Shown piece by piece: positions 269-63,776 of a DNA stretch of 64,000 nucleotides. Position numbers and translations under genes: made by a program. Under the pieces are notes generated by a model. That model was not told the origin of the DNA, searched no databases, and saw only the letters and a program-made list of their open reading frames with translations. The stretch comes from Nannobrachium achirus (taxonomy: Eukaryota; Chordata; Actinopteri; Myctophiformes; Myctophidae), in NCBI GenBank assembly GCA_963921795.1, contig OY997643.1:17430879-17494878 (forward strand), in the 5' to 3' direction. Position 1 is the stretch's first letter. Each line of letters starts with the position of its first letter.

Positions 269-3200
269 CTGCGCACACACACACACACACACACACACAC
301 ACACACACACACACACACACACACACACACACACACACACACACACACACACACACACACACACACACACACACACACACACACACACACACACACACAC
401 ACACACACACACACACACACACACACAGCTCTGTGCTCTAATGTGGTTTAGACTAATCAGTGTCACTGGGCAAAGGAAACAGCCAACGTGGAACAAGACT
501 TTTCAACTGCTGCTGAAAACAGCATGACGTTGCAATCATTTAATTATTTAATTTAATTGTATACAAAGGTTTATTTTGTTTTTAGTAGACCGTTACACCC
601 GTGGCGGTGGTTCTCAAACCTTTTCATTTTCAAGGATCCGTTTAACTGACCTTTCTGTTTGCTGGGTTATACAGTCTTCAACAGGGGGTCCGGGACCCCT
701 AGGGGGTCCTCAGAGTAACTACAGGGGGGCCACCAAAACTTTGTGTGATAAGAACTTTATTTTTTCTACACTAACCACTTGAACCCTACTAAGTATCCCT
801 ATTCTGTGTGGAACATTAGCCACTGCAAGGCGCTGTGAGCTTGTAGATCTGCTATTCTTGGCAAAGAGGTTTGGTGTAGAGGGAAAAGCAGAGCTAAAGC
901 CTCGATCAGAGTCGGGTCCGTGGTGGAAGGCTATCCACCGCGGTGTAGTCTTTTTGAGTCTTTTTGAGTCATGCAACTACAACGTTACGTCATTCCTCGC
1001 GGTGAAGAGCTTTCCACCGCGAGTCCCGACACATCTCTCTGTTTTTACTTTCAGACAGATAGGCTCTTCACCCCGTTCACTGATTGGTCTTTGATTGATT
1101 GATTGAAGACTTTATTAGAAGTTTGCATAGGAAAAGGTACAGTTTCATGACGGTACAGTTCACTGGTACAAGGTCTACTAAAAGGAGATCCATGAAAAGA
1201 CTAAGCTTATTTCCACTGGAAACCATTGAAGTATCTCATATAACATTGAATGACAGACAAATAGAACACAGTACTATGCAGTAGATATGTAAAGAAAAAG
1301 AAAAAAGAAAACAGTAAGTCTAAACAAACAGTATATACAAAGAAGGGGCAGGGGAGGGTAGGGTTGGGCTAGGTTCATTCTTTTTTACCAGTTGCGAACG
1401 GCTGCTGCCTGTAAGTGGTTTTTCAGGGCAATTTTAAAGGATGCTAGTGATCCACACTCCTTTATGGCCTTCGGTAAGGCTTTCCACATTTTGGTGGTAT
1501 AGCAGAAAAACGAGTTTGACCCTTTGTTGGTTTTTACTCTGGGTTGGAAGTGATCTGTGGCGCTGCCTCTGGTGTTATAATTATGGACATCCTTAATGTT
1601 TATAAAGTATTTTGACAGGTACTTGGGTATCATAGTGGTGTAGTGTATCTTGTACACCAGGCCCATTGCAAGTTGCTGTACTCTGTCATCTACTCTGAGC
1701 CACCCCACTCTTAATTGGTGAGTAGCGGTGAGGTGAGTCTGATAGGGAAGGTTAAGCAGGACCCTAATTAGTTTATTTTGGGCTGTTTGGAGTTTTGTTT
1801 TCAGGGCTTGTGGGGCGTCACGATACCATACGTGGACTCCGTAGTCAAAGAGGGGCTGGATTATTGCACCAGCTATGGTCTTCAGTGTGTTGAAATTGAC
1901 CATTGGGGCGATCCTCTGTAGGAAACGAGTTTGTTGATTGATTTTATTTATTACTTTAGAAGTCATCTTTTCACTGGAAAGATTAGCTTCAAGGATACAT
2001 CCTAAGTAAGAGATTTCGTTTTTTCGTGTTATGACCTTGTCACCCACTTTGATTGTGAAGTTATCGACTTTTTTGAGGTTATGATTTGATCCAAAGAGGA
2101 TGGACTCAGTTTTTCCCAGGTGAATTGATAATTTGTTGTCATTAAGCCATGTGCAGATCTTACTTAGTTCAGAGTTAAGTGTCTTTTCAACCTGCAAGTG
2201 GTCCTTGCCCGAGACTAGGAGAGCCGAGTCATCCGCGAACAAGAACAGGTTGCAGTCACAAACAGATGCCATGTCGTTCACGTATATTAGGAACAACAGA
2301 GGTCCCAGTATGCTACCTTGAGGAACACCACAGCTTACTGGGAGGGGGGGGGACAGGGTACCGTTAATCTCCACCACCTGTTCCCTCCCCACCAGGTAAG
2401 ACTGCATCCAACTCACTGCTGCGCTGTCAAGACCGATGGCTTTTAGTTTCTCAATCAGAATAGAATGATTTACGGTGTCAAATGCCTTCTGGAGTCCATC
2501 ATGACCATGCCGCTATATTTGCCGTCATCCGCTTCGCGTTTGATTTGGTCAGTCAAATAGAGAAGGCATGTGTCAGTGGAATGAGATTTTCTGAATCCAG
2601 ATTGGAACTCGTAAATCAGATTATTCTCATCGAGATATCTTGCTATCTGTTTGTAGACTATTTTCTCCATGACTTGGTCAATCTAGACTAGTCAGTCACG
2701 GTGAATAGGACTCCACCGTGGCGTACTATGATGGCCTGCACTTATTTTCTGACTTGAGGTGGAAAGCTTTCCACCTCAAATTTGCGGTGGATAGCTCTTC
2801 ACCATAGACTCTGATCGAGGCTTTAGTATTGACAGTTCAAGCCGTTGTCTAAAATGTCTAAAAATACACATCAAACCAACAACCTACATTGATGATAGTG
2901 CTGTCAAACAAGTCTAAGCTGTCTAAGAAATCTATGAACAATTTTATACAATACGTAGTGTGGGTCCCTTCGTTATCTCTTTCTCAGCTAAGGGGTCCTT
3001 GGCCTGAAAACGTGAAGACCCCTGCAGTACGCTGTGTTGTTACAACCCTGATGTTATAAATTAAATCTGTGCATGTGTGTGCGTGCGTGCGTGTGCGGCT
3101 CATTGAGTGAGTGATTTTCCAGCCTTCTGGAGAGAAGGTTAAAAGGCTGTCTTTCCTCAGCTCCTGTGGGCTTTCCTCTCTCCACACCCAGCCAGCTTAC

Positions 3201-63776: not shown

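What the first reader, a model, noticed from the sequence alone, without database searches (positions are those of the whole stretch)
830..61470. Undescribed hairpin repeat family with about 30 copies in 64 kb
A short palindrome with arm core GCAGATCTACAAGCTCACAA, usually bordered by AAAATA/TATTTT, occurs whole or halved near 838, 4500, 5401, 6160, 6508, 7366, 7739, 10845, 15590, 16229, 18772, 19437, 20950, 22126, 22706, 24540, 26651, 29455, 31679, 31964, 34396, 37446, 44142, 46751, 47140, 47468, 48960, 59808, 59920, 61204 and 61438. It lies inside at least five unrelated MITE families (hAT types, a Harbinger type) as well as outside them. No coding capacity or known family name fits. One copy per 2 kb would mean a very large number genome-wide.
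Basis: partly seen in the sequence, partly recalled or inferred. Interest (0 to 1): 0.85.

Follow-up and report, generated by a model that had tools for sequence, protein, structure and literature searches.

The report
Hairpin module shared by unrelated MITEs
A 71-base palindrome, estimated at more than half a million partial or whole copies in this fish genome, sits inside several differently built families of small non-coding jumping DNA, which seem to have passed it around as a passenger.

Summary
The window has 33 arm matches (3 mismatches or fewer; 0.01 expected). Its genome (1.66 Gb; fish by gene content) has 78,470 exact 18-mers, reversed control 0. Twenty chosen 10-kb stretches hold 78 such arms, control 0, and 69 hairpin loci: roughly 0.7 million arms.

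The unit is a 71-bp palindrome. It lies inside complete non-autonomous elements of different build: hAT-like elements of seven TIR types (in some only through a nested MITE), a CTA-flanked palindrome, a TA-flanked MITE and TTAA-ended elements. Beyond the unit, similarity between host types falls to background, except in a lineage that shares a flank.

Families keep the hairpin (86 of 108 flank copies). Losses look like deletions at short repeats. The arms show no overall mutual correction.

Best explanation: a passenger palindrome, amplified by whichever MITE holds it and moved between families by nesting (seen for one MITE) and perhaps template switching (inferred). Self-mobility is not excluded, but no common target duplication or ancestral empty site was found. 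Transposase and Repbase/Dfam checks could not be made.

The parts
4500..4570 (.). full 71-bp hairpin in an F2-type (TA-flanked) MITE, itself inside a hAT-like element 4379-4766
   Evidence: DNA fold z -15.6 for 4492-4576
4379..4766 (+). hAT-like host, TIR CAGTGTTTCTCAACC, imperfect 8-bp duplication (GTCTAGTG/TTCCAGTG, 6 of 8)
6156..6214 (.). hairpin, A-type host flanks
6576..7551 (+). hAT-like element, TIR TAGGGATGGAGCT, TSD GTCTAGAG, holding a half hairpin at 7368
7662..7876 (+). 215-bp Harbinger-like palindromic element (TSD CTA, TIR GGGCTCTATTATGATC) with the hairpin at its centre (7744)
10830..10900 (.). hairpin with a U-type (F1) right flank and an unclustered left flank (weak box match, so relation not excluded)
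16150..16401 (+). F2-type MITE standing alone (ends TATCGTCGTTGTCGGG / CCCGACAACGACGATA, TA flanks read by eye), hairpin 16233-16291 near its centre
19139..19722 (+). complete hAT-like element, TIR CAGTGGTTCTCAACCT, TSD GTGTAGGC (8 of 8), with a half hairpin at 19445
22126..22186 (.). hairpin in an F5-type element (TAGGGATGGGACGATA ends, read by eye)
26656..26731 (.). hairpin with F4-type left flank; right arm carries an insertion
31203..31580 (+). F1 hAT-like element (8-bp duplication, 7 of 8) whose hairpin site reads TTTGCCAAAAATAGCTACAG: hairpin missing, probably lost
31965..32033 (.). hairpin, A-type host flanks
44145..44215 (.). best-preserved hairpin of the window (1 and 0 mismatches in the core arms); RNA fold z -10.0 for 44139-44222
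47143..47213 (.). hairpin, left member of an inverted A-type pair with 47473-47520
47473..47520 (.). short hairpin, right member of the A-type pair
48964..49026 (.). hairpin in an unassigned context, variant arms (GCTGATC..GCTCTC)
833..858 (-). half hairpin in U-type (F1) flanks
61443..61462 (-). single arm bordering a TA microsatellite

Best explanation
The hairpin is a passenger module: a 71-bp near-perfect palindrome for which no own means of movement was seen. It sits in the interior, often near the middle, of many non-autonomous DNA transposons. Each host family copies it when a transposase recognises that family's ends in trans. It enters new families when a hairpin-bearing MITE inserts into another MITE and the composite is then amplified, and probably also when palindromes of two MITEs exchange flanks by template switching at the hairpin. 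Shown here: presence at one place in most copies of each clustered family; complete hosts of different end and duplication types; nesting of one hairpin-bearing MITE (F2) in three other elements; absence forms that fit deletion of the hairpin between short repeats. Inferred: trans-mobilisation, amplification of composites, nesting of the U type, erosion of inner ends, template switching.
For: Complete hosts with matching TIRs: 12 convincing of 107 loci scanned, namely 11 hAT-like of seven TIR types (8-bp duplications matching 7 or 8 of 8) and one CTA-flanked; in L014, L016, L021 and L025 the hairpin is there through a nested MITE. The hairpin-bearing F2 MITE is 93% identical over 205 bp inside two hAT-like elements with different TIRs, 80.6% over 247 bp inside a third, and stands alone at window 16150-16401. 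TTAA-ended elements: A type, 600 bp with a hairpin in each terminal repeat (L030), and U type, 158-245 bp; 17 of 164 loci gave a row, displaced control 1 of 45. Between flank communities, outward identity is 0.63-0.90 at positions 1-6 and 0.23-0.36 beyond. With flank models (built from hairpin-bearing copies), 86 of 108 family copies carry the arm and 10 clearly do not. Hairpin-less sites number 114 (F2) and 104 (F4), controls 0; the commonest F4 form joins a CTATT direct repeat. 15 empty F2 copies mix with 4 filled ones in a tree.
Against: For F4-, H- and L020-type hosts, and for unassigned contexts, no inner MITE ends are visible round the hairpin, so nesting there is only assumed. The complete U elements all lie in F1 hosts; that U is an insert there is inferred from its ends, and the test for an F1 host without U did not complete. 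Eight of 28 host contexts have a family-specific palindromic extension of 4 bp or more (control 3%; 4 of the 8 involve side cluster 6 or 10, so they are not independent), which plain nesting does not predict. No transposase or autonomous element was examined, because that search did not complete. Of 17 hAT-like candidates in 264 kb, 9 contain the hairpin (2 of these low complexity), and displaced controls give 0-7, so hairpin carriage is common but not universal and some candidates are chance.
Confidence: 0.55

Rival explanations
1. The hairpin is itself a tiny mobile palindrome of the nuclear genome that inserts on its own, preferring centres of existing palindromes such as MITE middles, as the mobile hairpins of organelle genomes are thought to spread.
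For: Constant extent with sharp ends between families; 41 of 75 paired hairpins have exactly 19 nt between the core arms; central position in the Harbinger-like palindrome; short family-specific palindromic extensions in 8 of 28 contexts, control 0.033; 52 of 203 intact sides in clusters under 3, with no recognised host.
Against: No shared direct duplication at any offset tested (best 2-mer 0.21 against 0.09, best 3-mer 0.09 against 0.04); no ancestral empty site found; the apparent TA-flanked empty site of F2 mixes with filled copies in a tree and fits deletion at ACTA; some families share flanks beyond the unit.
Confidence: 0.2
2. The hairpin is the old fixed middle of one ancestral MITE, and all host families descend from it by gradual replacement of their ends.
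Against: None of the sides in clusters 0, 3, 6, 10, 11, 12, 13, 15 and 16 has the box. Flanks of F2, F4, H, the L020 type and the Harbinger-like host show no relation in these tests, while arms from different clusters differ by 0.193, about as much as flanks within one family (0.186; 0.282 on unseeded positions). Shared descent alone would not erase flanks and keep hairpins.
Confidence: 0.17
3. The hairpin is kept by selection, for example as a source of double-stranded RNA or as a protein-binding palindrome that helps its carrier spread.
For: Very stable fold (z -10.0 RNA, -15.6 DNA for two window copies); presence in many families; on unseeded positions the same arm differs between copies by 0.142, somewhat less than flanks (0.186).
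Against: Partner arms of one hairpin differ on average (0.183) more than the same arm does between copies (0.097), so no general compensation, though 4 of 15 clusters (0, 6, 13, 14) go the other way; frequent one-arm copies (127 unpaired arms against 75 pairs).
Confidence: 0.06

Closest known systems
Angel elements of zebrafish, and the Angel copy inside the hAT transposon Tol2
   Same: High-copy fish DNA elements with long inverted repeats that can fold into a stem-loop (PMC3636048, passages); one lies inside a hAT element (PMC8151067, figure legend).
   Different: Consensus not available for comparison here; from memory its sequence is different and longer. Carriage by several MITE superfamilies is not described in the passages that I saw.
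Hairpin repeats of organelle genomes: Volvox palindromic repeats, sponge RHEs, yeast mitochondrial GC clusters
   Same: Short palindromes (10-100 nt in Volvox), stems conserved in sponge RHEs, held to be selfish and mobile (PMC2670323, PMC2800124, PMC4478555; passages).
   Different: Those are organellar; the Volvox authors judge the nuclear copies inert (about 0.06% of nuclear DNA). Here the nuclear genome carries them inside DNA transposons.
V domain of SINEs carried into mammals by the MITE MER6
   Same: A conserved module hitchhiking in a MITE burst (PMC6887750, abstract).
   Different: One domain in one MITE; not a palindrome shared by several element types.
MITEs in general (hAT, PIF/Harbinger, Tc1/mariner-like, TTAA types)
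   Same: Host elements have such end and duplication signatures.
   Different: A common internal palindrome across these types is not among their usual features (my knowledge, no call).

Membership tests
hAT non-autonomous elements (as hosts) | 8-bp target duplication and short matching TIRs | tested here: met
   11 loci, seven TIR types, duplications 7-8 of 8; window 19139-19722 8 of 8; in a similar scan 17 were found and displaced controls gave 0-7
hAT non-autonomous elements (as hosts) | related autonomous element with a hAT transposase in the genome | not tested
   PF05699 search did not complete
PIF/Harbinger MITE (host at 7662-7876) | 3-bp target duplication (TWA-type, recalled) with matching TIRs | tested here: inconclusive
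   duplication is CTA, TIRs match; one copy only; superfamily name from its look (recalled)
TTAA-ended MITE (A and U types) | TTAA at both ends with matching TIRs | tested here: met
   (L030 for A; L017, L031, L044, L049, L053 for U); control 1 of 45; transposase not sought
TA-flanked (Tc1/mariner-like) MITE (F2) | TA duplication next to matching TIRs | tested here: met
   read by eye in several copies (window 16150-16401, L077, L080, L082); ends of other copies are mutated or ambiguous; superfamily name inferred from TA only
Free-standing transposon for the 71-bp unit itself | constant target duplication at its ends | tested here: not met
   for F2
Free-standing transposon for the 71-bp unit itself | defined, constant ends | tested here: inconclusive
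   sharp between most families, but flanks are shared within the U/G/A lineage and some contexts extend the palindrome
Angel element | sequence similarity to the Angel consensus | not testable with these tools
   no Repbase or Dfam; difference recalled only
Known structured RNA | Rfam match above gathering score | tested here: not met
   0 matches in the window

The most novel reading that the evidence does not exclude
A self-propagating nuclear hairpin: a 71-bp palindrome that copies itself into the centres of existing palindromes (MITE middles, hairpin tips) through replication template switching, without transposase or target duplication. It thereby colonises one MITE family after another and may help to create new MITEs.
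Probability: 0.17. Interest if true: 0.88.

Novelty: new variant of a known kind. Interest (0 to 1): 0.6.

Why it matters
If right, one non-coding palindrome has crossed the borders between differently built transposon families and reached an estimated 0.7-0.9 million arms in one fish genome. It would be a natural case for studying how MITEs exchange parts, how long palindromes survive and decay in a vertebrate genome, and why some MITEs succeed. It also warns that repeat annotation by consensus similarity can merge unrelated MITE families through a shared core.

Tried and rejected
A TA target duplication for the unit. F2 copies look like TA-[hairpin]-TA, and 15 of the 100 listed (of 114) hairpin-less places are exact 'empty sites'. 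But the 15, all fetched, do not form a clade apart from the 4 filled copies (2 of the 15 are near-identical to each other, and the tree is of short sequences with modest support), and F4 shows the same kind of deletions at its own short repeats. Rejected as evidence of insertion. I classified only the commonest forms, not every one.

Arm-to-arm correction (conversion inside the palindrome): not supported; own-partner divergence 0.183 against 0.097 between copies, own larger in 11 of 15 clusters and smaller in 4.

Sharp ends everywhere: weakened by the flank comparison, which shows a lineage with shared flanks.

Chance or a known RNA family: rejected. A viral-contig 18-mer match has no second arm near it and is judged chance.

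Paper searches for a shared MITE core or hairpin (capped listings) showed no title or abstract start describing one; led to the analogues cited.

Not resolved: number of independent acquisitions; autonomous partners; whether other fish carry the unit; species name.

Full report
Observation. The arm core GCAGATCTACAAGCTCACAA occurs 33 times in the window with 3 mismatches or fewer, where shuffles give 0.01, and 44 times with 5 or fewer, 0 in 3 Markov shuffles.

Genome scale. The window lies in a 1,658,514,493-base assembly. The exact 18-mer GCAGATCTACAAGCTCAC occurs 39,576 + 38,894 times, and the reversed control 0 times. In 20 chosen stretches of 10 kb, one from each of contigs C1-C20 (185,935 readable bases), 78 arms have 3 mismatches or fewer and 99 have 5 or fewer, control 0; they form 69 loci. 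Scaled up, that is about 0.70 and 0.88 million arms and 0.62 million loci. Density is uneven (0 to 18 arms per stretch at 3 mismatches or fewer), so this is a rough estimate. The window (33 arms in 64 kb) is of the same order.

Anatomy. In the pooled set (67 sequences, 342,748 bases; partly chosen around exact 18-mers and so enriched) there are 277 arms: 75 pairs and 127 unpaired; 41 of 75 pairs have exactly 19 nt between core arms. The unit is then AAAATA + 20 + 19 + 20 + TATTTT = 71 bp. Two window copies fold far better than shuffles: RNA z -10.0 at 44139-44222, DNA z -15.6 at 4492-4576.

Hosts. A scan of 107 loci found complete elements round the hairpin (I discard the two low-complexity rows at W_61443 and the doubtful L024 row, leaving 12 loci). 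These are hAT-like with ends CAGGGGTTTTCAAA (L002, L025), CAGGGGTCTTCAAC (L005, L017), CAGGGACGTGCTGG (L014, L021), TAGGGCATTCAC (L016), TAGGGCTGTCAC (L020), CAGTGGTTCTCAACC (L029, window 19139-19722) and TAGGGATGGAGCT (window 6576-7551), plus one CTA-flanked Harbinger-like palindrome (window 7662-7876). Duplications match 8 of 8, or 7 of 8 in L005 and L016. In L014, L021 and L025 the hairpin is there through a nested F2 MITE, and in L016 through a nested F4-like stretch, so the number of direct hosts is smaller than the number of TIR types. A scan of 164 loci for TTAA ends gave 17 rows, displaced control 1 of 45. Convincing ones are the U type (158-245 bp; L017, L031, L044, L049, L053, all in F1 contexts) and a 600-bp A-type element in L030 with one hairpin in each terminal repeat; some other rows are probably unrelated or chance.

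Nesting. The hairpin-bearing F2 MITE has ends TCGTC..GACGA with TA flanks in several copies read by eye. It lies inside hAT-like elements with ends CAGTGTTTCTCAACC (window 4379-4766, duplication 6 of 8) and CAGGGACGTGCTGG (93.2% identical over 205 bp), and CAGGGGTTTTCAAA (80.6% over 247 bp). It stands alone at 16150-16401. The same CAGGGGTTTTCAAA hAT family (L002 and L025, 87% over 94 bp at the end) carries the hairpin in two different contexts. The U core recurs in F1 and F5 hosts and, at 71% over 142 bp, in L002. That U moved there as a TTAA element is inferred.

Fate. Using flank models of 15 side clusters (built from hairpin-bearing copies), 86 of 108 family copies in window plus sample keep an arm at 0.7 identity or more (random 99th percentile 0.71) and 10 are below 0.5. 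Genome-wide, hairpin-less F2 and F4 sites number 114 and 104, controls 0; how many filled sites exist did not complete. The commonest forms are joined at short repeats: of the 100 listed F4 sites 25 are the CTATT-joined form, and of the 100 listed F2 sites 15 are the ACTA-joined form (my count; a few are neighbours or near-identical). The 15 F2 empties intermix with 4 filled copies in a tree (mean distances 0.201 empty-empty, 0.192 empty-filled, 0.180 filled-filled). I read these as losses, not ancestral empty sites. This matches the known instability of palindromes during replication (general knowledge).

No correction, no clear constraint. In 50 full-length hairpins, partner arms differ by 0.183, the same arm between copies by 0.097 and arms of different clusters by 0.193; flanks within a cluster differ by 0.186. 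Own exceeds between-copy divergence in 11 of 15 clusters with both values and falls below it in clusters 0, 6, 13 and 14. Arms were found by similarity, so the first three values are biased down; on the 15 unseeded positions they are 0.287, 0.142 and 0.282. Old asymmetry between arms also raises the partner value.

Mechanism. I commit to the passenger model at 0.55. Shown: carriage, place within families, nesting of F2, hairpin-less forms joined at short repeats. Inferred: mobilisation in trans, spread of composites, nesting of U, erosion of inner ends, template switching. Self-mobility (0.2) and common ancestral middle (0.17) stay open. A mixture is possible, since the U/G/A lineage fits the latter.

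Known relatives. Angel is the nearest nuclear analogue (passages). Mobile organelle hairpins are the nearest in behaviour (passages). The V domain in MER6 is the nearest case of a hitchhiking module (abstract). Text searches for the arm sequence returned 0 papers. Repbase and Dfam could not be consulted, so 'undescribed' is unproven.

Noticed in passing
L007 from 2132 on, and L008:50-655 (identical sequence): Half hairpins have become a tandem array: 14 arms in units of 31 and 52 bp (GCTGTGAGCTTGTATATCTAAAGTTACCAGG...), a small satellite born from the hairpin.
   Followed up: partly
window 41179-42327 (-): Exon of a family 3 G-protein-coupled receptor (7tm_3 and NCD3G), possibly an olfactory type.
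   Followed up: partly
window 54687-55283 (-) and 62147-62503 (-): Caspase domain exon and a CARD domain exon about 7 kb apart on the same strand.
   Followed up: partly
window 1388-2512 (-): Reverse transcriptase fragment (RVT_1), probably of a LINE-like element.
   Followed up: partly
window 39589-40715 and 30640-31001: Tandem arrays with periods of about 127 bp and 36 bp (self-comparison).
   Followed up: no
window 61204-61470: Two hairpin arms each border a long TA microsatellite; the microsatellite may have grown from the hairpin flank or the arm may have landed there.
   Followed up: no
window about 22780-22860: A tRNA-like stretch (GGTTCGAATCCCGGGCG) lies next to the degenerate hairpin at 22706 (by eye; no tRNA search run).
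   Followed up: no
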